A stretch of DNA of 64,000 bases from assembly GCF_002085925.2 (NCBI RefSeq), contig NZ_CP053562.1, forward strand, positions 3,361,501 to 3,425,500. The letters run 5' to 3'. The notes below the pieces were generated by a model. It was not told where the DNA came from. It saw only the letters and a list, made by a program, of their open reading frames with translations, and searched no databases. The DNA is from Thioclava electrotropha. GTDB lineage: Bacteria > Pseudomonadota > Alphaproteobacteria > Rhodobacterales > Rhodobacteraceae. A program made the position numbers and the translations under genes. Position 1 is the stretch's first letter, and each line of letters starts with the position of its first letter. Shown here in pieces: positions 1,040-10,562 of this stretch.

Positions 1040-2863
1040 TCACACCGCGCGGCTCGTGCTGCGTTCGGCGTCACGCATCTTCATGAACCTTGCGTCGGGC
1101 TTGGTGCGCAGGATGGCAGGTGCACCGCTCTCGACGATCCGACCCTCTTCCAACGCGAAAACCATATCCGCGAATTCGACCATCGAATAACGATGCGCGA
1201 TCGTGAGGATAGCCATCGGGGTTTCGATCTTCGCAAGGTTCGCCACGATACGGTTCTGACTTTGCCAGTCGAGCGCACTCGTCGCCTCGTCGAGGATCAG
1301 CAGCTCGGGCTTTCTCAGCAAAGCGCGTGCCAGCGCGATCCGCTGACGTTCTCCCCCTGACAACAGCACGCCACGCTCCCCCAGCAGAGTGTCGAGCTGC
1401 GCGGGAAGCGAGAAGACGAAGTCCGCGGACGCGACGCGGAGGGCCGCCTCCATGTCCTGCTGATCCGCCTCCGGCGCGCCAACTTGCAGAGCTTCGCGCA
1501 CCGTCATCGGTGGCAGATAGGTGTCCTGCGTGACGTATGAAATCCGGTGCCGCCAGCTCCGAATATCCATCGGATCTAGGTCTTGACCGTCGATGAGGAT
1601 CTTGCCGGTCTCGGGCCGAATGAGGCCGCAAATCAGATCCGCGATCGTCGATTTTCCAGAACCCGACGGCCCGATCAGCGCCGTCACCTCCCCCGCGCGA
1701 ACGGAAAGGCTGACATCCTCCAACGCACGCGGCAGGTCTTCGCCGTGACGATAGGATACATTCTCCAGCCGGATTTCGTGCCATGGCGCGCGCGTCGCGA
1801 TCGGCAATCCCGCCGCGACATCGCGCTGGCGGATCATCTCACCCTGGACATTTCGAATGTGCTGCCAACCCGGTAAATTCACCAGGAACATCTGCGCCTG
1901 CTGCTGAAGCGTCATGAACCGCGGGGCCAGCCGCATCATCACGAGCAGCAAAACGACAATCTCGGAAATCGCGAGGCCGAGCTGCACGAGCGACAGGTAG
2001 ATGAAGATTACCGCACCGATCGCCTGGGCGATCTGGAAAATCCCGGAGCCCGTCGCGGTGCGCCGCGCGAATTCGCGTGTGTCCGTCCGTTCCATATCGA
2101 GGATCGCATCAAACCCTGCGATTTCCGCCTCTTCGAGGTTCATCGCTTTCGCCGTCTTGAGCCCCGACAGGAACCCCGAAACCGCACGGAACTGGTCGCG
2201 CCGGAGCCCCTGCAGCTTCACACCGTATTCCGCAGACATTTTCCGATAAGGCCTGAGGGCGAGAAAGGCGACGACGCCGAACACGGCGGACAACACCGTC
2301 ATCGGCACGGAAATCATGAGCCCCAGCGCCACGTAGAGCACAAGCGATGCAGAGCCCTGGATAAGCGACATCAACAACATCGATGCCATCCGAACCCGCT
2401 CCACCTCGCCGACCAGCGCATGTTCCAGATCGGCGTTGCGCTGGCGGACCAGATGATCCCACCGGCTCTCGGCGATGGAGGAAAATAAACCATGCCGCAA
2501 GATCGCGGAGAACCTCAGCTGGATGTCGGTGACATAGACCGTGCGCATCCGGTTGAACAAAGCCTGCAGAATGAGAAAGCAGACGAGCATCGAGAGCAGC
2601 ACGGCGAGCGGGAGCGTGAAGGCGGGAAGCGTCACTCCCATGAATTCGCGCTCAGTGATCTCGATGATCGGCGCGCCTTCCTCCGAACGGGACACGAGGC
2701 TCAGGATCGGCAGAAGCAGAAGGACGGAAATGCCTTCGCTGAGGCTGCTCAGCATCAACATACCCAAGGCGATATAGAGCTTGTTGCCCGCCGCACGACG
2801 CATCGTCGTGAAGAGGTTGCGCGCCTCGCTCAGAGACGCTCTGGCGGAGAGAACGTCGCTCAA
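1040..2863 (-). CDS. Lasso-peptide ABC exporter (D protein)
   Basis: About 607 residues, the usual length of a half-size ABC exporter. The first ~330 residues form the membrane domain, with six predicted helices. The nucleotide-binding domain follows with Walker A (LIGPSGSGKST), signature LSGGERQR, Walker B (LLILDEATSALD) and the switch His in TIAHRYS. The start is probably the TTG at 2863: it overlaps the kinase stop as TTGA, and AGGA lies directly upstream. It is the last gene of the minus-strand lasso operon and ends 21 bases from the convergent ExoX-like gene. McjD-type transporters of this architecture export the mature lasso peptide and give self-immunity. A role in polysaccharide or lipid export cannot be excluded from the protein alone, but the overlap ties it to the lasso genes. 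Confidence 0.85.
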   Translation of the reverse strand: MSDVLSARASLSEARNLFTTMRRAAGNKLYIALGMLMLSSLSEGISVLLLLPILSLVSRSEEGAPIIEITEREFMGVTLPAFTLPLAVLLSMLVCFLILQALFNRMRTVYVTDIQLRFSAILRHGLFSSIAESRWDHLVRQRNADLEHALVGEVERVRMASMLLMSLIQGSASLVLYVALGLMISVPMTVLSAVFGVVAFLALRPYRKMSAEYGVKLQGLRRDQFRAVSGFLSGLKTAKAMNLEEAEIAGFDAILDMERTDTREFARRTATGSGIFQIAQAIGAVIFIYLSLVQLGLAISEIVVLLLVMMRLAPRFMTLQQQAQMFLVNLPGWQHIRNVQGEMIRQRDVAAGLPIATRAPWHEIRLENVSYRHGEDLPRALEDVSLSVRAGEVTALIGPSGSGKSTIADLICGLIRPETGKILIDGQDLDPMDIRSWRHRISYVTQDTYLPPMTVREALQVGAPEADQQDMEAALRVASADFVFSLPAQLDTLLGERGVLLSGGERQRIALARALLRKPELLILDEATSALDWQSQNRIVANLAKIETPMAILTIAHRYSMVEFADMVFALEEGRIVESGAPAILRTKPDARFMKMRDAERSTSRAV

Positions 2864-3846
2864 TCCTCGTCTCCGGTCATTGCGCGATCCGAATTCAGAT
2901 CGGCGCGAATGGCATCTGCGAGGGTGGTCATGGCGTCAAGCGTTGCGGGAAGCCGCAGGATGCGGACCTTCACCCGCCCGGCAAGCGAGACGGCGTCCCG
3001 AAAGTGGCGATTGGCTGGCTCTCCCGACAGCAGGTTCTCTCCGAAGCGTACGCCGTAGGAAAACCGCAGGATCGCGGGCAGCGACTGGCTGGCGGCCACG
3101 TCGGCTGTGGAAGCCATCTCGCCCTCTCCGCGTTCGAGGATATAGAGACGCACGGCGGGAGCCGCATATTCTGCCGTCGCATCGCGAGGAAGCTGCACCC
3201 GCTTCTTGTCGATTGCCGCATGCACATCGCCCCGGGCGACGGACTTCTGCGGCCGGTGCGCCTCAAGGGCCGCGTCGGACAGCTTCACCTGGCCGAAGCC
3301 CGACAGAACCTCCCCGTCCGGCGTAAAGGCGACGAGGTCATCCGCGAGGAGCTTGCCGCCGGCATTCAGCAATGCCGCCGCGGAGGTCGACTTTCCCGTG
3401 CCCTTGTCCGCCATCAGAACGACGGCCTGCCCCCCGAGGGAGACCGCACTCGCATGCAGGACGAAATGCCCCTGACGCCGCAGCGCCTCGAACAGGATCG
3501 GGCCAAGCAGCGGAAAAGCGATGAGGTCGTCGCTGACACCCTCTGCGGGCTCGCAGAGAATTTCCGTACCGTCGAGATTGACGGAGAAGGCCCCGACGGT
3601 TTGCCAGTAGAACCGTGTTTCCGCAGCCCCGAACTCGTACCAGGTCGGCAAAGATCTGGCGTTTTCGGGCAGTTCCACCGGCGCACGGCGAATGCGCAAG
3701 CTGCGCGGCTCTGCAACCGAGCCGGGAACGACAGAGGCCAGCTCCGGGAGTTCAATATCGGAAACAACCTGCATGCCGTATGTGCTGTAGGAATATGCGG
3801 GGGCGCCAAGCCCCTGCGCGGCTTCAATATGTTCGAGTTCGGTCAC
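2860..3846 (-). CDS. HPr-kinase-like lasso peptide kinase (K protein)
   Basis: A 328-residue protein starting at GTG 3846, which overlaps the cyclase stop as GTGA and has GGGAGGT about 7 bases upstream. It shows the HPr kinase/phosphorylase C-terminal fold signatures: LHASAV near residue 130, P-loop ADKGTGKST at 146-154 and LLADD at 166-170. The N-terminal ~110 residues are not recognisable as an HPr kinase N-domain. Proteins of this type in lasso clusters, exemplified by PadeK of the paeninodin cluster, phosphorylate the side chain of the precursor's C-terminal Ser. The precursor here ends in Ser, which matches. Translational coupling on both sides (cyclase before, exporter after) indicates a dedicated role rather than carbon regulation. 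Confidence 0.88.
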   Translation of the reverse strand: MTELEHIEAAQGLGAPAYSYSTYGMQVVSDIELPELASVVPGSVAEPRSLRIRRAPVELPENARSLPTWYEFGAAETRFYWQTVGAFSVNLDGTEILCEPAEGVSDDLIAFPLLGPILFEALRRQGHFVLHASAVSLGGQAVVLMADKGTGKSTSAAALLNAGGKLLADDLVAFTPDGEVLSGFGQVKLSDAALEAHRPQKSVARGDVHAAIDKKRVQLPRDATAEYAAPAVRLYILERGEGEMASTADVAASQSLPAILRFSYGVRFGENLLSGEPANRHFRDAVSLAGRVKVRILRLPATLDAMTTLADAIRADLNSDRAMTGDED

Positions 3847-5732
3847 GCGTGGACCTCCCTTATCGGTTCTATTCCAGATGCAATCGGTTGGCGGGCGCGT
3901 TCTTCGCGCTCGAGCCACATGTCGAGCCACGCAGCGCGCCAGAGCTGCATGACCTCCAATCCACCGGCATCGGCGGAGGTGTCGAACAGCGCCCGCGCGG
4001 TCTCTTGAAGGCGCGCGATATTGACGTATGGCTCAAGTCGTTCTGGCGGGTTGTCGATATACTGCCGCAACTGTCCCTGCGGGTCCTCGCGCATCGCGCG
4101 GCGATTGTTGGCGGTGAAATCGACCTTCGTCGATCTCAATCGGACATGCTCCGGCAGGATGCCTTTCATCGCATCGCGCATCAGGGCGCGCGGCTGTCCA
4201 TTCTTGATCTTGTCCGCATCGGATCGGTTTACGCAAAGCTCGACGACGCGCCGGTCGTAGAACGGGAACCGCAACTGCAGCCCCAAGGGGCGCGTGGCTC
4301 GATCAAGCAGCTCGAACGCGCTCGGCGTCAGATCCCCCGCGAGGGCGCGCGCATGCGTCGCAAAGCCAAACGGCATGTCCGAATAGAGTGCGGTGCTCGC
4401 GGCTTCGGAACGCGCGCGCAGATCCAAACGCGAAACCAGCTCCGGCGCGACAATGCTGAACCAATCCGGTTGGGCCGGATCGCTCGAACTGAAAAGTCGA
4501 CGCTGCAACCGACCCGCCAATTTCGCGGCGCTACGGTTTCCGCCGTGGCGTGCATAGGCCATCACGAAGGACGCGACCGCACCACGGCCACCCGCGAACC
4601 CATGCAACTTTCTCAGCAACGTCCAAAGCTTCGCCCACTCACCGGACCGGGCGAGTTCATTGAGATAGGAAAAGGACGCGCCTCCGATGACTTCATCGCC
4701 GCCATGCCCGTCGATCAAAACGGCATGCCCATCCGCCCGCGCTGCGGAACAGATCGTATGCGTCGTCACCATGCCAAAGCCCGGGAAAGGCTGTTGCTGG
4801 TTTGTGAGGAAAAGGTCCGAAAGCGTTGGATCGAGTGCCGTTCCAACGCCGCCATTCAGCATCGTGGGTCGGAAGTTTCCGGCCTCCAGAAAGGCATCGA
4901 TATATTCGCCCTCATCGAGTTCAGGCGCAGAGGGAAACCGCAGCGAGTAGGTCGGGAAAGGCTCTGACGACAATCGCGATGCAAGGATCGCCAGCGAACT
5001 TGAATCCAGCCCCCCACTTAGCATCGCGGCGGCGGAGCCTCCGCTCATTGCTTCGCCGGTGGCGTCCGAGAGCGCATCTCGCAAGGCCTCGTCACTCTGC
5101 TCGGCAGCACTCAAATCCCGCGGCTCGAGGCTCCACCACGTGCGCGGTGGTGACAGCATGCCATCGCGATAGTGCATCAGCTTTCCCGGAGGCAAGCGGA
5201 CGATATCTTTCCAAGCCGTGCGCGTCTGATTGGTCAGCTGCCCCGAGAGATGTTCGGTGATCCAAAGGACGTCGTGCTCCGGACGGTCTCCGGTCATCGC
5301 GATGACGGCTTCGGGATCACTCGCCAACGCAAGCCCGCGCGCATTGGCCCGGTAGACCACCGGCTTGAGACCAAACCGATCCCGGACGACAACAACGGTT
5401 GCGCGCTTCGGATCCCAGATTGCGATCGCGAAAGCTCCCTCGAGCACATGGCCGAGCTCGTCGTCGAAGCGATCATAGGCTGCGGCAACAAGTTCGATGG
5501 CCGAGCTGTTTGGCGGCATCGCCAGACGCCGCGCCGTGTCGCGCAGGTGGGTAAGGTCCAGATCGGCCGCGACAAGCGCGCCGGTTGCGCTGCGCGTCGT
5601 CTGCGGCCCCGACATGAGAACCGACGATCGCGCGGATGCTTCAACCACGGCGTTCCGCAGCTCGGGAACGGCTGCCAGCTTGGCGGGATCCGCGAAACCG
5701 CCAATTGCGCAATGCAGTGCGGGCCGGTTCAT
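3843..5732 (-). CDS. Lasso cyclase, asparagine synthetase-like (C protein)
   Basis: About 629 residues from ATG 5732, whose ATGA overlaps the stop of the leader-peptidase gene. The N-terminal half resembles a class II glutaminase domain but begins MNRPALHC, without the nucleophilic Cys at position 2, so it should not release ammonia. RDRFGLKPVVY is at about 117-127. The synthetase half carries the PP-loop SGGLDSS (239-245) and DGHGGDE (341-347), so ATP-dependent activation should be intact. In lasso systems this enzyme adenylates the Asp or Glu side chain at core position 7-9 and joins it to the core N-terminus while the tail is threaded. The same frame stays open upstream to 5990, but that part overlaps the peptidase gene and is not used. 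Confidence 0.92.
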   Translation of the reverse strand: MNRPALHCAIGGFADPAKLAAVPELRNAVVEASARSSVLMSGPQTTRSATGALVAADLDLTHLRDTARRLAMPPNSSAIELVAAAYDRFDDELGHVLEGAFAIAIWDPKRATVVVVRDRFGLKPVVYRANARGLALASDPEAVIAMTGDRPEHDVLWITEHLSGQLTNQTRTAWKDIVRLPPGKLMHYRDGMLSPPRTWWSLEPRDLSAAEQSDEALRDALSDATGEAMSGGSAAAMLSGGLDSSSLAILASRLSSEPFPTYSLRFPSAPELDEGEYIDAFLEAGNFRPTMLNGGVGTALDPTLSDLFLTNQQQPFPGFGMVTTHTICSAARADGHAVLIDGHGGDEVIGGASFSYLNELARSGEWAKLWTLLRKLHGFAGGRGAVASFVMAYARHGGNRSAAKLAGRLQRRLFSSSDPAQPDWFSIVAPELVSRLDLRARSEAASTALYSDMPFGFATHARALAGDLTPSAFELLDRATRPLGLQLRFPFYDRRVVELCVNRSDADKIKNGQPRALMRDAMKGILPEHVRLRSTKVDFTANNRRAMREDPQGQLRQYIDNPPERLEPYVNIARLQETARALFDTSADAGGLEVMQLWRAAWLDMWLEREERARQPIASGIEPIREVHA

Positions 5733-6175
5733 GGGCGCGCCTCGCCTTGCGCAAACGCCGTCATATTCTTCAACAGCGTATGGCGCGCGAATTCCGCGCG
5801 CGTTCCACCAAGCACGATAATATTGTCGGACATCAACCAGGCATGCGGACGAAACTCTTCCCCGCCCATCGGCAGCGACAGGCGTACGGTGGAGTCGATC
5901 CCGCGACGTGCAAGCAAGAGCTGCCCCGACGTGGCCTGCGTCAAACAGGTTGCTTGCGGAACGAGACGCGCAGCAGCAGCCACGGCCCATGAAATTTCAG
6001 CGAGAGTGCCGCGGTCGGCGGCTTTCGGCTCCGGAAAACGCGCGGCATTGGACACCACGATCTTGCGCAATGCATCGTGGCGGTGGCGCCACAGATCGAC
6101 ACGCACACGCACGACTGTCACGAGCGCCTCGAACAACAGTCGAGCGTCGTGAAGGATCGGCCGTTTCCAACGCAT
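5729..6175 (-). CDS. Lasso leader peptidase, transglutaminase-like (B2 protein)
   Basis: A 148-residue protein typical in size of stand-alone lasso B2 proteins. The putative catalytic Cys is at residue 77 (PQATCLTQA). The His is at 111 in PHAW and a likely Asp at 117 in LMSDN, giving the Cys-His-Asp arrangement of this family. It removes the leader from the precursor next to the Thr at -2, working with the leader-binding B1 protein encoded one base upstream. The stop overlaps the cyclase start (ATGA). B1 and B2 are split here; many proteobacterial lasso clusters instead carry one fused B protein. Confidence 0.92.
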   Translation of the reverse strand: MRWKRPILHDARLLFEALVTVVRVRVDLWRHRHDALRKIVVSNAARFPEPKAADRGTLAEISWAVAAAARLVPQATCLTQATSGQLLLARRGIDSTVRLSLPMGGEEFRPHAWLMSDNIIVLGGTRAEFARHTLLKNMTAFAQGEARP

Positions 6176-6176
6176 T

Positions 6177-6449
6177 TCACGCAGCCTCGACGAGACCGTT
6201 TTCGTGAAGGTCGCTCAGGAGCACCGAGACATCCTCGGCAACGGTGTCGCGCGGAACAGAATAAGCGCCCGAAATCGTATCGATAATTTCTTCGACGCTC
6301 TTTTCGTCGCCCAATAGATTCCAGACGATAGCGCCGATGGAATCCAGACTGAAATAGGCATTGGAATTTAAATCCAAAATCGCGACGCCGTCACCATAAG
6401 GACAAGCAACACATTCGGAACGAACCCGATATTGGGACATTGCATTCAT
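6177..6449 (-). CDS. PqqD-like lasso RiPP recognition element (B1 protein)
   Basis: A 90-residue protein with the PqqD/RRE pattern VAILDLNSNAYFSLDSIG followed by IVWNLL. Helices matching the winged-helix RRE fold follow to the C-terminus. Such proteins bind the YxxP part of the precursor leader and deliver it to the peptidase and cyclase. Either ATG 6449 or the in-frame ATG 6440 could be the start; GGGTGGGT lies upstream of the first. The next gene (B2) begins one base after its stop. It lies 87 bases after the precursor gene, with a strong hairpin between them. Confidence 0.93.
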   Translation of the reverse strand: MNAMSQYRVRSECVACPYGDGVAILDLNSNAYFSLDSIGAIVWNLLGDEKSVEEIIDTISGAYSVPRDTVAEDVSVLLSDLHENGLVEAA

Positions 6450-6490
6450 AGACTACCCACCCACACCTTGAGAGCCACGTTGCATAGAGT

Positions 6491-6518
6491 GGACAGAGGC
6501 GAGACCACGCCCCTGTCC
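6491..6518 (-). other. Stable hairpin between precursor gene and B1 gene
   Basis: The arms are GGACAGAGGCG (6491-6501) and CGCCCCTGTCC (6508-6518). They pair over 11 bp, with one G-U wobble in the RNA, around a 6-base loop. There is no T-run on the minus strand after it, so it is more likely an RNA-stabilising or attenuating element than a full terminator. In several lasso operons a hairpin after the precursor gene raises precursor mRNA relative to the enzymes; the same role is inferred here. Confidence 0.65.
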
Positions 6519-6536
6519 TTCTCATTTTTTTACGAA

Positions 6537-6671
6537 TTACGAGAAGGTAAGACCCGCAATATCCGTACCGGGCGGCAGCACCTGGTCGGCGATCGTGGTG
6601 CTACCTGCACCGTGGGTCAGGTCTTCGAGCTTGCCGTGCTTTTGAAGCTGCGGACGAGTATACGTTTTCAT
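6537..6671 (-). CDS. Lasso peptide precursor (A protein), 44 residues
   Basis: A short reading frame, ATG 6671 to TAA 6537. AAGGGGG lies 9 bases upstream. The leader carries the lasso signature Y4-x2-P7-x-L9-x3-G13-x4-L18-T19 (MKTYTRPQLQKHGKLEDLT). His20 would be the last leader residue and Gly21 the first core residue, putting Thr at -2 as in known lasso precursors. The 24-residue core begins GAGSTTIAD, so Gly1 and Asp9 can close a 9-residue macrolactam. It continues QVLPPGTDI and ends AGLTFS. Ile18, Leu21 and Phe23 are possible steric locks. The C-terminal Ser24 fits the kinase encoded downstream. The core start resembles paeninodin, which is also G/S/T-rich with Asp9. The product and its topology are predicted, not shown. 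Confidence 0.9.
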   Translation of the reverse strand: MKTYTRPQLQKHGKLEDLTHGAGSTTIADQVLPPGTDIAGLTFS

Positions 6672-6680
6672 CAGTAGATA

Positions 6681-6687
6681 CCCCCTT
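6681..6687 (-). promoter_or_regulatory. Strong ribosome binding site of the lasso precursor
   Basis: On the minus strand AAGGGGG stands 9 bases before ATG 6671. It fixes the start of the precursor and suggests high translation of the peptide. A similar AGGGGG precedes the divergent small ORF at 6851. Confidence 0.7.
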
Positions 6688-6724
6688 TTGACGTTACGTA
6701 CTCATTTTGGCTTGCGCCTCCTAA

Positions 6725-6753
6725 AGTCTTTAATCAGGCTCCACTTGAGTCAA
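6725..6753 (-). promoter_or_regulatory. Candidate promoter of the lasso operon
   Basis: On the minus strand TTGACT (6753-6748) matches a sigma-70 -35 box. A poor -10 (TAAAGA or AAGACT) follows 15-17 bases later, near 6732-6725. It lies about 55-80 bases upstream of the precursor ATG in a region more A+T-rich than its surroundings. Only the -35 half is convincing. Confidence 0.28.
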
Positions 6754-6850
6754 ACCTTAGTCCATTCGGAGCGTCACAGCTTCAGTTCGCTGCGAAAATA
6801 ACAGGCAAAATCAAGGCAATATTCCCGCGGCCGATTTCAGGGGGTCCAAT

Positions 6851-7021
6851 ATGCGAGCATCCTGTCCGAAAACCCGCTCAAGAAATGAGCGCGTTAAAAT
6901 TTCGCCAGAAAGCTGGACATTTAAAATTGCAACCTTCGGGGAATTAAAAAGTCGCGCAATTCAACCTGAGGTTGATTTCTCGATGGATTCGATTCGCGAT
7001 TTCGTGAAGGTAGGCGCGTGA
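6851..7021 (+). CDS. Unknown 56-residue protein coupled to the nucleotidyltransferase gene
   Basis: I do not recognise this protein. ATG 6851 has AGGGGG 6 bases upstream (CAGGGGGTCCAAT), an excellent Shine-Dalgarno. The stop TGA at 7019-7021 overlaps the GTG start of the next gene (GTGA), as seen between neighbouring lasso genes. The product starts MRASCPKTRS, is basic in its first third, and ends SMDSIRDFVKVGA. It has no membrane segment, no signal peptide and no lasso leader signature. It could be a small partner of the nucleotidyltransferase, a second modified peptide or a coupling leader ORF. It faces the lasso operon across a shared promoter region of about 180 bases. It is called from its ribosome binding site and the overlap, not from homology. 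Confidence 0.5.
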   Translation: MRASCPKTRSRNERVKISPESWTFKIATFGELKSRAIQPEVDFSMDSIRDFVKVGA

Positions 7022-8124
7022 GCTTTCCGGAGAAAGAGCTCATTTACGTGAAGCGGCGCGACTGTTCGACACAGGTCGAAATTCTCAGGAAGATGGCATC
7101 CGGTCAAGCGCCGCCGATCAGCACTGACCCTCGCCTTCTCTTTGAAATCGCGCGCGTGAACAAGCTGTTGATGCACCCCGGGTGGCCAGACCTTCAAGGC
7201 GATGCAGCCGAGCAGGTGAACGCTGAGCTCAACTTCGGACGCATGCGCGGAATGCTTTCGAATAATCGCGGATTGAAGCTCGCCGCAGAGATCACCGAAG
7301 CGCTCGATGCCGGTCAGATTCCGCACCTTCACCTGAAAGGCCCGTTGCAGCAAATCCGGCTCTACGGCACGCCCCTTTTCAAGCCGTCCGGGGATGTCGA
7401 CATTCTGGTCGCGCCCAAGGACCGGATCGCGGCGGGAAAGATCCTCGAAGAGGCTGGGTTCAAGCCCACCGAAGCCGAACTCGGCAGCTGGTGGGTGCAT
7501 TTCCTCGGCGAACGCCATTTCGAAGCGCCGGACCAACCCATCTTCGTGGACCTGCACCATAGCGTCCAACAGCCCGGCTTGCCGCGCCCTCGGAACTTGG
7601 TGGGCTTCCTGCATCGGGCGGTGAGGCAGTCGGTCGCGAACAGCACACTGCCGGTGCCGTCCCCGCCAGACATGTGTTTGATCGCCGCGATCACGCTCTG
7701 CAAAGCCTTTCTTTCGCATGAACCTGCGGGCTCTGTGGCCCTCGACATGATCAAGGCATTCGAGAGTCTCGAGCTGGACGAACGGGATCAGCTCGAACAG
7801 CTCGCCCGACAGACGGGCCTCTCGGAAACACTGGATTTCGCAATGGCCCTCGCAACCAGCAGCATCGGGCAAGACGGCCTCCCGCCGCGATCGCACGAAC
7901 TGCTTGCCGACCGTTCTGCGGAAACCGTTCGCGACATGGTCTTTCAGCCTTGGAAGAAAGGGCTGAGTTTCCCCAGACGGCGCGAAATTCTGGCAAGCCT
8001 CTGCGGGCGCGACCTGTGGCGTCTGGTGCGCGAAAGCAATCGGGCCTTCCTCTCGAACGCCTTCCTTAACGTGATCGCGCGCACACGAAAGCCCGTCGGC
8101 GAAGTGGGAGAAACGAAACGATGA
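7018..8124 (+). CDS. Lasso-associated nucleotidyltransferase family protein
   Basis: A 368-residue protein with the core of the uncharacterised nucleotidyltransferase family PF14907: LHLKGPLQQIRLYG at about 104-117, then PSGDVDILV, where the GD-x-D acidic pair should bind metal and nucleotide, and VDLHHSV further on. The GTG 7018 start has GAAGG 7 bases upstream and overlaps the preceding small ORF. Members recur in lasso clusters that also carry an HPr-like kinase, where they are thought to modify the peptide after phosphorylation; the exact reaction here is unknown. The gene is divergent from the lasso operon and overlaps the next glycosyltransferase gene by 4 bases. A role in the surrounding polysaccharide locus is the alternative. 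Confidence 0.8.
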   Translation: MSFPEKELIYVKRRDCSTQVEILRKMASGQAPPISTDPRLLFEIARVNKLLMHPGWPDLQGDAAEQVNAELNFGRMRGMLSNNRGLKLAAEITEALDAGQIPHLHLKGPLQQIRLYGTPLFKPSGDVDILVAPKDRIAAGKILEEAGFKPTEAELGSWWVHFLGERHFEAPDQPIFVDLHHSVQQPGLPRPRNLVGFLHRAVRQSVANSTLPVPSPPDMCLIAAITLCKAFLSHEPAGSVALDMIKAFESLELDERDQLEQLARQTGLSETLDFAMALATSSIGQDGLPPRSHELLADRSAETVRDMVFQPWKKGLSFPRRREILASLCGRDLWRLVRESNRAFLSNAFLNVIARTRKPVGEVGETKR

Positions 8125-9104
8125 CCCCGGAGATTTGCGTCGTAATCACTGCGTATAACGCCGAAGACACGATCGGCGATGCGGTCCGGTCCGCACTCGA
8201 ACAGCCGGAAGTCGCCGAGGTTGTCGTGGTCGATGATGCTTCCACGGACAGAAGTGCAAAGGCCGCGCAGGACGCCGCGGCGGGTGACGCGCGTCTGATC
8301 GTTCTTCGAAACGACAGCAATCAGGGGCCGGCCGCAGGCCGCAACCGTGCAATCGCCGCCTCCCGGTCCCCGTTTCTGGCAGTGCTCGATGCAGATGACT
8401 TTCTGCTCCCCGGCCGCTTCTCGCGCCTCCTCGCCTATGAAGGCTGGGATCTGATCGCGGACAATATCGCCTTCGTGCCCGCCGATATGGCGCAGGCATT
8501 CGACCCTACCCGGCTTCCCGACAGTGAGACGCGGGTTTTCGAACTCGATCTGGCCGGGTTCGTAGAAGGGAATATGGGCAAACGCGGCGAGACGCGGGGC
8601 GAGCTTGGCTTTCTCAAACCGCTCATGTCGCGCGCCTTTCTGGAGCGGCACGCTCTGCGCTATGACGAAAGCCTGCGGTTGGGCGAGGACTTCGATTTCT
8701 ATGTCCGCATGCTCGCGCGCGGTGCGAAATTTCTTGTCACCAGCGAATGCGGCTATGCTGCACGCGTGCGGGAAAATTCGCTCTCGGGCCGGCACGGGAC
8801 GGGGGATCTGAGTGCGCTGATGACAGCGGCATCGGCACATCTCGACGACCAATCGGTGCCCCGCGCGGCGAATTCCGCCATGCGTCGGCATCACGACCAG
8901 ATCCGCGACCGCTACCTGCTGCGGCGCTTTCTCGACATCAAGGCGCAGGACGGTCTCAGGGCGGCCTTCGGCTTCTCTATCAAGCCGCCGCGGAACTTCA
9001 TGCCGATCGCGTCGGGTATTTTGCGGGACAAATTGCGTGCCCAAAAACAACCCGCCGCACCGGCGACAAACACGCTCCGCCTCTTGCTTCGCCCCGAGGA
9101 CTAG
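8121..9104 (+). CDS. Family 2 glycosyltransferase, ExoO-like
   Basis: A 327-residue GT-A fold enzyme. VVITAYNAEDTI opens the nucleotide-binding domain, VVVVDDAS follows, and the metal-binding DxD is in AVLDADDF near residue 92. LGEDFDFYVRML supplies the catalytic-base region (ED). No membrane segment is seen, so it is likely a cytosolic or peripheral enzyme. Its ATG overlaps the stop of the nucleotidyltransferase gene (ATGA). It shares the block LGFLKPLMSRAFL..RYDESLRLGEDFDF with the convergent gene at 9131-10330, and the two look like paralogues. It may add a sugar to the exopolysaccharide repeat unit or, given the coupling, to the lasso peptide. Confidence 0.85.
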   Translation: MTPEICVVITAYNAEDTIGDAVRSALEQPEVAEVVVVDDASTDRSAKAAQDAAAGDARLIVLRNDSNQGPAAGRNRAIAASRSPFLAVLDADDFLLPGRFSRLLAYEGWDLIADNIAFVPADMAQAFDPTRLPDSETRVFELDLAGFVEGNMGKRGETRGELGFLKPLMSRAFLERHALRYDESLRLGEDFDFYVRMLARGAKFLVTSECGYAARVRENSLSGRHGTGDLSALMTAASAHLDDQSVPRAANSAMRRHHDQIRDRYLLRRFLDIKAQDGLRAAFGFSIKPPRNFMPIASGILRDKLRAQKQPAAPATNTLRLLLRPED

Positions 9105-9130: not shown

Positions 9131-10330
9131 CTAAGCCTGCTCCTGCGCCCATTGCGGCAAAAGCCACCGCGCCCAGGCCCCTGCCCCATCCAGAGCCTCC
9201 GGAATGACGTCGTTCGCTTCGGAAAGGGCGCTCAACTTCGCGGCCATTTTCGCGGGCGGCGAAGCCCACATCGCACCGGGCGCGACCGGCTTCGGTACGC
9301 TGACATGCATTTTCTCCGCGACGGATGCGGTCGCGATTTCATCGGCCAGCACGTCAGCCCCTTCCTCAGCCCCGAGAGAGACCCGAACCGCACGGCGCTC
9401 CGGGCCAGTCGCGTCTTTGCCTTTGCGTCTCTCGGCGAGACTTCGGAGAACGTCCTGCGCCAGAGACGGACGCCGCGCGATTTTTATCGCGGCCGCCGCG
9501 AACTGCCGGGCTTTCAGGTTGGCCACGAGCGCTTCGAAGTCTGCCATCTTCCGCAACCCGCGATGGCGCGCGGCCAACTGCGCGGCAACGGCTGGGTCCA
9601 GCCCCTCCGACAACCGCTGCTGCGCGCGGATCATCGCGCCGATCGCGGCAGGCGAAAGCCGATGCGAAATCGATGCATTATGTCGACGGTACAGATACAT
9701 CGGGTCGGGCAAAGCATGGAACTTCGCGCCCTTCAGCAAGAGACGCAGGACGAAATCGAAATCCTCGCCGATCCGAAGATCGGGATCGTAACGCAGATCG
9801 CCGAGGATCGCGCGACGGATCATCGGCTTGAGATACCCAAGCGGCGGGAGCTCGGTCTCCGGCGCGGCGGCCTCGACCCACAGCTTCGCCGTAATCTCGA
9901 GCGGCGCCACCAGAGACATCGGTTCAAGCAAAGTGCGACCGCCCGATCCCGGCACGGTCCCGAAGAAGACCATGTCATCCGCGATAACATCCGCACCCAG
10001 CGTTTCCGCCCCTTCCAGCATCCGCTTCAGCCGCTCTGGATGCATGAGGTCGTCACTGTCGAGAATGGCGACCCACTCGCCTTTGGCCCGCTCGAGCGCG
10101 CGATTGCGTGCGGTTGCCGGGCCGGAAGACGTATCGGCTGTCAGCACGTCGATGCGCGGATCCTGCCGCGCGAAATCCTGTGCAATGGCCACGCTGTCAT
10201 CATCCGATCCGTCATCGGAGATGATCAGCCGCCAGTCCGATACGGTTTGGCGGCGTAGCGATGCGATTGCAGTCGCGAGATAGGACGCGCCGCACCAGTT
10301 CGCCATGATAACCGTGATGCGCTCCGCCAA
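9131..10330 (-). CDS. Family 2 glycosyltransferase, ExoO-like
   Basis: About 399 residues. ITVIMANWCGASYL and LIISDDGSDD start the GT2 domain, with the DxD in VAILDSDDLM. LRIGEDFDFVLRLLLKG is the acceptor/catalytic block shared with the neighbouring convergent gene. The start is placed at TTG 10330 because GGTGGAG lies 7 bases upstream; the frame is open to 10390 but without a ribosome binding site. The ~170 residues after the catalytic domain are helical and of unknown role. Likely one of the enzymes that build the lipid-linked repeat unit of the exopolysaccharide. Confidence 0.85.
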   Translation of the reverse strand: MAERITVIMANWCGASYLATAIASLRRQTVSDWRLIISDDGSDDDSVAIAQDFARQDPRIDVLTADTSSGPATARNRALERAKGEWVAILDSDDLMHPERLKRMLEGAETLGADVIADDMVFFGTVPGSGGRTLLEPMSLVAPLEITAKLWVEAAAPETELPPLGYLKPMIRRAILGDLRYDPDLRIGEDFDFVLRLLLKGAKFHALPDPMYLYRRHNASISHRLSPAAIGAMIRAQQRLSEGLDPAVAAQLAARHRGLRKMADFEALVANLKARQFAAAAIKIARRPSLAQDVLRSLAERRKGKDATGPERRAVRVSLGAEEGADVLADEIATASVAEKMHVSVPKPVAPGAMWASPPAKMAAKLSALSEANDVIPEALDGAGAWARWLLPQWAQEQA

Positions 10331-10562
10331 TACAGTCTCCACCAGTGATGAAGACACGCTAGCCCATGCGTGCTGCCGAGTCGGCTGCACGCGCGCCTGA
10401 CAAGAAAGCTGCCGAAGTCAGGTCTGCATCACGCTGCATTTGCGAGCCACAGAAAGCGAAACGCCAAAAAATCCATCGCTTTAAGACAGCTATGCCCGAG
10501 GCCTCCTGCATGTGCCACCAAAGCCCGAGCGATTCGACTGCGGGGCGCGGTACAAAGGCTGC

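What the first reader, a model, noticed from the sequence alone, without database searches (positions are those of the whole stretch)
1040..8124. Complete lasso-peptide gene cluster with a previously hidden precursor gene
Seen: six consecutive minus-strand genes with exactly the parts list of a lasso system (precursor, RRE, leader peptidase, cyclase, kinase, ABC exporter), the last five separated by 1 base or joined by 4-base overlaps. The 44-residue precursor (6537-6671) is below the size normally annotated and is antisense to an unrelated open frame, so standard gene calling can miss it. It carries Y4..P7..L9..G13..L18-T19 and a core starting GAGSTTIAD. Known: this leader pattern, Thr at -2, Gly1 and Asp9 define class II lasso precursors. 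Inference: the product is a 24-residue lasso peptide with a Gly1-Asp9 ring.
Basis: partly seen in the sequence, partly recalled or inferred. Interest (0 to 1): 0.95.

Follow-up and report, generated by a model that had tools for sequence, protein, structure and literature searches.

The report
Lasso peptide genes inside exopolysaccharide locus
A bacterium very close to Thioclava carries genes predicted to make a knotted (lasso) peptide that would likely receive a phosphate and a sugar; they sit inside a gene set for outer-surface polysaccharide, as in all 20 loci with a matching precursor that could be checked, so the peptide may serve that polysaccharide rather than be a free antibiotic.

Summary
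In detail: 1040-6671(-) is a complete lasso operon (A-B1-B2-C-K-D) with a 44-aa precursor and a predicted 24-residue Gly1-Asp9 core. The reading is incomplete. (1) A divergent nucleotidyltransferase gene N (7018-8124) goes with the cluster: present in 5 of 5 Thioclava genomes with B2, 0 of 11 without. K plus N is the gene pair of phosphoglycosylated pseudomycoidin, so C-terminal Ser24 is the likely phosphate and sugar site. (2) The precursor type is not hidden: 493 relatives, some already named RiPP precursors; 117 of 120 fetched end in Ser. (3) The operon lies inside an exopolysaccharide locus. Of 20 loci with this precursor type, 20 have two or more polysaccharide markers and 19 have N; of 62 other alphaproteobacterial lasso loci, 1 and 0. 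Such co-localisation is in print for Bacilli paeninodins; my searches showed none for Alphaproteobacteria. (4) An orphan second precursor lies 8 kb left of the window; relatives of it elsewhere lack a ring acid. Verdict: new variant of a known kind. Product, modifications and role are untested.

The parts
6537..6671 (-). A: precursor, 44 aa; leader 1-20, predicted core GAGSTTIADQVLPPGTDIAGLTFS (24 aa; Gly1, Asp9, Ser24)
6177..6449 (-). B1: PqqD-like leader-recognition protein (RRE)
   Evidence: PqqD 64 bits
5729..6175 (-). B2: leader peptidase; Cys77 and His111 conserved
   Evidence: NF033537 57.1 vs 33
3843..5732 (-). C: lasso cyclase (asparagine-synthetase type), SGGLDS loop conserved
   Evidence: (NF033535 292.6, below its cut-off 525)
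2860..3846 (-). K: HprK-like kinase, predicted to phosphorylate the C-terminal Ser of the precursor; His131, Lys152, Ser153, Asp169, Asp170 conserved
   Evidence: (all below cut-off)
1040..2863 (-). D: ABC exporter
   Evidence: ABC_tran 128 bits
7018..8124 (+). N: NTP_transf_5 nucleotidyltransferase, divergent from the operon; predicted to add sugar to the phosphorylated Ser
   Evidence: PF14907 90.6 bits; (5 of 5 with B2, 0 of 11 without); fold; Asp126, Asp128 conserved
8121..9104 (+). GT1: family 2 glycosyltransferase of the polysaccharide locus, overlapping N by 4 bases
   Evidence: PF00535 100.7 bits; also present in Thioclava G300, which has no lasso genes there
9131..10390 (-). GT2: family 2 glycosyltransferase
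   Evidence: PF00535 107 bits
10512..11333 (+). GH16: family 16 glycosyl hydrolase
   Evidence: PF00722 93 bits
11318..12547 (+). Wzy-type polymerase / O-antigen ligase family
   Evidence: PF04932 59 bits
13840..14697 (-). WbaP-like sugar transferase (polysaccharide initiation)
   Evidence: PF02397 199 bits
16013..17524 (+). Wzx-type flippase
   Evidence: PF13440 238 bits
1..662 (+). 3' end of a Wzc/Wzz-type polysaccharide gene that begins left of the window
   Evidence: (AAA_31)

Best explanation
The window encodes a lasso-peptide operon (A-B1-B2-C-K-D) with a divergent nucleotidyltransferase gene N inside an exopolysaccharide locus; its product is predicted to be a 24-residue class II lasso peptide with a Gly1-Asp9 ring that is likely phosphorylated on its C-terminal Ser24 by K, then likely given a sugar by N, and would act in or on the exopolysaccharide made by the neighbouring genes. 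Predicted order of steps: B1 binds the leader YxxPxL motif and presents the precursor; K phosphorylates Ser24 of the linear precursor; B2 cuts after His20 (Thr at -2); C joins Gly1 to the Asp9 side chain around the threaded tail; N adds one or more sugars to the phospho-Ser (before or after folding is unknown); D exports. Shown by sequence: gene content, order, conserved motifs, conserved Ser24, Asp9 and Thr(-2), N found together with B2, and the exopolysaccharide setting. Inferred: every chemical step and the role.
For: Family hits. Same order A-B1-B2-C-K-D with N in relatives of several genera. Precursor: 493 relatives at E <= 1e-3; of the 120 fetched, 117 end in Ser and 112 in TFS, and 116 fit Thr(-2), Gly1, Asp9 and a 24-residue core; the search profile was built from such sequences. 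K motif His131/Lys152/Ser153/Asp169/Asp170 conserved in at least 95% of 21 aligned sequences, N motif Asp126/Asp128 of 20. N present in 5 of 5 Thioclava genomes with B2, 0 of 11 without. Two or more polysaccharide markers in 20 of 20 loci with this precursor type against 1 of 62 other lasso loci; N in 19 of 20 against 0 of 62. Eight of the 20 came from a search by precursor alone over 398 genomes of the phylum. NCBI annotation of a Paracoccus plasmid shows the same block among sugar transferase, O-antigen ligase, GH16 and glycosyltransferases. Precedents: PsmK phosphorylates the C-terminal Ser and PsmN is needed for one or two hexoses on it; SyanK of a sphingomonad phosphorylates the C-terminal Ser (PMC9266682 and PMC8498205, passages). 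Bacilli paeninodins often co-localise with capsular polysaccharide loci (PMC13381572, passages and discussion).
Against: No product, expression or phenotype is known. K is below every curated kinase cut-off and was not compared with PadeK, ThcoK or SyanK (no sequences in hand). A kinase alone does not predict the polysaccharide link: 25 of the 62 control loci have a K match and none of those 25 has two markers. The Asp of the B2 triad that I recall from McjB is not conserved here (Gly-Gly at 123-124 instead). In the LPP system deleting lppN changed nothing detectable in a heterologous host, and BsfN has no assigned function. The window core is a divergent member: Thr5, Ala8, Leu12 and Gly20 where the family mostly has Gly (114 of 116), Leu (105), Phe (111) and Asp (106). 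The marker set came from the window's own locus and the loci share ancestry, so the p value ignores relatedness. In Thioclava the polysaccharide locus is itself patchy: a strong Wzy match is in 6 of 16 genomes, 5 of them with lasso genes, so only G300 separates the two. Linkage does not prove function.
Confidence: 0.6

Rival explanations
1. An ordinary lasso peptide used against competitors; the polysaccharide genes are only neighbours that travel on the same mobile segment, such as plasmids.
For: The whole block with its polysaccharide genes lies on a 41.8-kb Paracoccus plasmid and the cluster is patchy: 5 of 16 Thioclava genomes. Patchiness of this kind was read in Bacilli as typical of biological conflict.
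Against: Two or more polysaccharide markers are found in 20 of 20 loci over at least four families with different gene orders, against 1 of 62 other lasso loci (7 of 62 have at least one marker); the core tail is nearly fixed, whereas I would expect antimicrobial cores to vary.
Confidence: 0.25
2. The kinase acts on a ring Ser near the N-terminus, as BsfK does on Ser3, and not on Ser24.
For: Core position 3 is Ser or Thr in 92 of 116 relatives and the window has Ser4; BsfK of a cluster with the same A, B1, B2, C, D, K, N gene set phosphorylates Ser3 (PMC10368454).
Against: The window has Gly at position 3; BsfA ends in Asp, whereas this family ends in Ser in 117 of 120; the sphingomonad kinase SyanK uses the C-terminal Ser.
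Confidence: 0.12
3. N is not part of lasso maturation but a gene of the polysaccharide locus (for example a sugar-phosphate transferase acting on the glycan).
Against: Thioclava G300 matches ten of the eleven polysaccharide markers with no match to N or to any lasso gene in that stretch, but this is one genome; N is in 0 of 11 Thioclava genomes without B2; PsmN and BsfN sit in lasso clusters.
Confidence: 0.15

Closest known systems
Pseudomycoidin cluster (psmK, psmN), Bacillus pseudomycoides
   Same: HprK-like kinase plus nucleotidyltransferase with a lasso cluster and C-terminal Ser in the core (reviews PMC9266682 and PMC8498205, passages; original paper not held)
   Different: Other phylum; here N is divergent and overlaps a glycosyltransferase gene, and the core belongs to the GxSxGxxLDAxFPxGTPxxDLTFS family
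SyanA/SyanK, Sphingobium yanoikuyae
   Same: Alphaproteobacterial lasso precursor with C-terminal Ser and a kinase that (poly)phosphorylates it
   Different: Sequences not compared here (not in hand)
bsf cluster, Bradymonas sediminis
   Same: Same gene set A, B1, B2, C, D, K, N (PMC10368454)
   Different: Leader Ile(-2), C-terminal Asp and phosphate on Ser3; here Thr(-2), C-terminal Ser and Gly3
Paeninodin-like lasso and LPP clusters in Bacilli capsular loci
   Same: Kinase plus NTP transferase RiPP clusters embedded in polysaccharide loci, role unknown (PMC13381572)
   Different: The paper calls those two groups restricted to Bacillota; here Alphaproteobacteria, Tyr-type leader, and the link found in 20 of 20 loci checked

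Membership tests
Class II lasso peptide cluster | RRE, B2 leader peptidase and asparagine-synthetase-type cyclase next to a precursor | tested here: met
Class II lasso peptide cluster | Leader YxxPxL, Thr(-2), Gly1 and Asp/Glu at core 7-9, no Cys in the core | tested here: met
Class II lasso peptide cluster | Threaded product with isopeptide bond | not testable with these tools
   needs MS/MS or NMR
C-terminally phosphorylated lasso peptides (paeninodin, SyanA) | HprK-like kinase with His-Lys-Asp-Asp motif in the operon | tested here: met
   the motif is from PMC9266682 and PMC10368454; K is below Pfam and NCBIfam kinase cut-offs
C-terminally phosphorylated lasso peptides (paeninodin, SyanA) | C-terminal Ser in the core | tested here: met
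C-terminally phosphorylated lasso peptides (paeninodin, SyanA) | Phosphate on that Ser | not testable with these tools
   needs co-expression and MS
Phosphoglycosylated lasso peptides (pseudomycoidin) | Nucleotidyltransferase gene N found with the cluster, with conserved motif | tested here: met
Phosphoglycosylated lasso peptides (pseudomycoidin) | Hexose on phospho-Ser | not testable with these tools
   needs MS; sequence of PsmN not compared
Bsf-type phospholasso | Ile/Val at -2, Ser or Thr at core 3, C-terminal Asp | tested here: not met
   window has Thr(-2), Gly3, C-terminal Ser
Linear polyphosphorylated peptides (LPP) | SipW-like leader peptidase and no cyclase | tested here: not met
   B2 and cyclase are in this operon

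The most novel reading that the evidence does not exclude
The lasso peptide is a structural part of the exopolysaccharide: phosphate and sugar put on its C-terminal Ser24 by K and N form the joint through which the neighbouring glycosyltransferases attach it to, or start, the glycan, giving a knotted peptide cap on a surface polymer. The same leader-reading machinery serves a second, orphan precursor whose relatives cannot form a lasso ring, so one enzyme set makes both knotted and linear FS-tailed peptides for the same locus.
Probability: 0.15. Interest if true: 0.9.

Novelty: new variant of a known kind. Interest (0 to 1): 0.6.

Why it matters
What phosphorylated lasso peptides are for is an open question (PMC13381572 says the roles of paeninodins are unknown). 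A second, distant group of bacteria in which this kind of cluster goes with exopolysaccharide genes, with a nearly fixed peptide tail, turns a guess made for Bacilli into a test that can be done in Thioclava or Cereibacter: delete A and look at the polymer. It also predicts an unseen joint between a lasso peptide and a glycan.

Tried and rejected
Chance frame: rejected by conservation in other genera. Second B2 in the genome: none; a Transglut_core3 search of the own genome gave one match. Close match of K to solved kinases by sequence: only weak HprK hits, best E 0.0078. Sigma-70-type promoter and terminator scans: 1 promoter-like site (shuffles 1.5) and 8 terminator-like sites (shuffles 6.8, sd 3.1), so no signal. 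A shared promoter of the two precursors: only a GGGGGTAT stretch before the start codon in common. A clean empty site: Thioclava G300 has the polysaccharide genes in another order, so no simple insertion point. Selection on A from close strains: uninformative, A is identical in all three at every codon. The DLTFS tail with 'lasso' in the paper library: 0 papers. Searches for lasso with exopolysaccharide, capsule or sugar-transferase terms (listings of at most 15 shown of up to 369 papers) showed only PMC13381572 as relevant.

Rows dropped before the 20-to-62 count: the near-identical Thioclava strains G299 and G306, one 4.1-kb contig end (L037, no markers possible to judge), and the second half of a split locus (L039, which has Wzc and glycosyltransferase markers); the weak leader-only hit G830 (E 8.4e-4) was not fetched; the Paracoccus plasmid was found later and is not counted. 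One of the 20 (L177) has Ala1 and ends in TFSN; one (L043) has a 26-residue core and no N match. Three of the 62 controls (L127, L138, L139) are below the B2 cut-off; 7 of 62 have at least one marker. For the second precursor, 16 of 388 family genomes matched at E <= 0.01: two have the new type, seven show only their ordinary A gene, and seven weak hits (E 1.6e-4 to 0.007) showed no such frame; only 17 first-look candidates per genome were scored, so some may be missed.
Full report
Observation. The precursor reads MKTYTRPQLQKHGKLEDLTH-GAGSTTIADQVLPPGTDIAGLTFS (the cut after His20 is predicted). Pfam and NCBIfam name B1 as PqqD-like, B2 as lasso B2 over its cut-off, C as an asparagine-synthetase-type protein and D as an ABC transporter; K matches HprK-like profiles below cut-off. 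The genome has one Transglut_core3 match, this B2.

Organism. Two records 98-99% identical in K are Thioclava sp. JE_KL1 and Thioclava sediminum; Thioclava is in the Rhodobacterales.

Precursor family. A profile of 11 precursors found 493 proteins at E <= 1e-3; of the 120 listed and fetched, 117 end in Ser and 112 in TFS, and 116 fit Thr(-2), Gly1, Asp9 and a 24-residue core. This is partly circular, as the profile was built from such sequences and these are the best 120. The window core is a divergent member. Names on record include Thioclava, Paracoccus, Cereibacter, Devosia, Mesorhizobium, Roseobacter and the cyanobacterium Rivularia. So the precursor type is widespread and partly annotated already.

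Setting. Left of the operon lie a Wzc-type gene and further genes with glycosyltransferase matches (three over a Pfam cut-off, two below it); right of it N, GT1, GT2, GH16, Wzy, a WbaP-like sugar transferase and a Wzx-type flippase. I counted tblastn matches (E <= 1e-5) to 11 such proteins in loci of up to 21 kb. Among loci with the precursor type, one per genome, 20 of 20 have at least two markers and 19 of 20 have N; among B2-bearing alphaproteobacterial loci without it, 1 of 62 (1 of 19 in the family, 0 of 43 in the class) and 0 of 62. With one marker of the strict set (GH16, Wzy, WbaP, Wzx, Wzc) it is 20 of 20 against 6 of 62. Fisher p is 3e-18 for two markers, but relatedness is ignored and the markers come from the window's own locus, so distant polysaccharide genes in controls may be missed. 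25 of the 62 controls have a K match and none of these has two markers, so the link goes with this precursor type and N, not with a kinase as such. Eight of the 20 came from a search by precursor alone in 398 genomes of the phylum, in which 10 matched, own included. Gene order differs among loci, so the link has outlived rearrangement. A Paracoccus plasmid annotated by NCBI shows the same block. Thioclava G300 matches ten of the eleven markers but has no lasso gene or N in that stretch, so the lasso part is optional to the locus; a strong Wzy match is in only 6 of 16 Thioclava genomes, the five lasso genomes and G300.

Second precursor. The precursor profile found a second place in the own genome, about 8 kb left of the window, between a PALP-family gene and a glycosyltransferase-like gene at the edge of the same locus (L144:3902-4087, minus, E 1.9e-5). 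Its leader ends YERPKLKHLGSLEDLTH and its core GGRGRGHKDDDYDGHGSYCPPDLAFS has Asp9 and a C-terminal Ser. It is in 3 of 16 Thioclava genomes, all three with the lasso operon; two genomes with the operon (G296, G307) lack it. In G051 a like gene lies 65 kb from its lasso operon, with no polysaccharide marker within 10 kb. Four database proteins, three of them named from Rhodobacter or Cereibacter, have Gly/Arg/His-rich cores ending in DYTFS without Asp or Glu at 7-9, so they should not form a lasso ring. In the family the type was found in 2 of 388 genomes.

Mechanism. Reviews report that PsmK phosphorylates the C-terminal Ser and PsmN is needed for one or two hexoses on it, that PsmN could be a glycosyltransferase or act indirectly, and that SyanK phosphorylates the C-terminal Ser of SyanA (PMC9266682 and PMC8498205, passages). 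I infer the same for K, N and Ser24. The role in the polysaccharide is inferred from linkage alone; PMC13381572 (passages and discussion) makes a like suggestion (biofilm), untested, for Bacilli.

Verdict. The finding is real. The lasso cluster as such is a new member of a known kind; with N, the exopolysaccharide link in Alphaproteobacteria and the orphan companion precursor I rate it a new variant.

Noticed in passing
L144:3902-4087 (-), about 7.9-8.1 kb left of window base 1: Orphan second lasso-type precursor (61 codons, or 56 from an inner GTG) beside a PALP-family gene; conserved at 97% in two close Thioclava genomes.
   Followed up: yes
L163:1471-1647 (+); P0121-P0124: Lasso-leader precursors with Gly/Arg/His-rich cores ending in DYTFS and no Asp or Glu at core 7-9, in G051 and in database proteins from Rhodobacter and Cereibacter: possibly linear products of lasso machinery.
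   Followed up: partly
L195 (NZ_CP067230.1, Paracoccus sp. MC1862 plasmid): A 41.8-kb plasmid carries this lasso block with N and polysaccharide genes: a possibly mobile polysaccharide-plus-lasso unit, typed non-mobilizable by PLSDB.
   Followed up: partly
L196 (NZ_CP084955.1, Sulfitobacter indolifex plasmid) about 7021-7182 (+) and 4713-5022 (-): A kinase-bearing lasso cluster with two precursor-like frames whose cores would begin with Thr or Ala instead of Gly; Wzz and sugar-transferase genes nearby.
   Followed up: no
window 5729-6175: B2 and its relatives have Gly-Gly (123-124) about where I recall the Asp of the McjB triad; the third catalytic residue is unclear.
   Followed up: no
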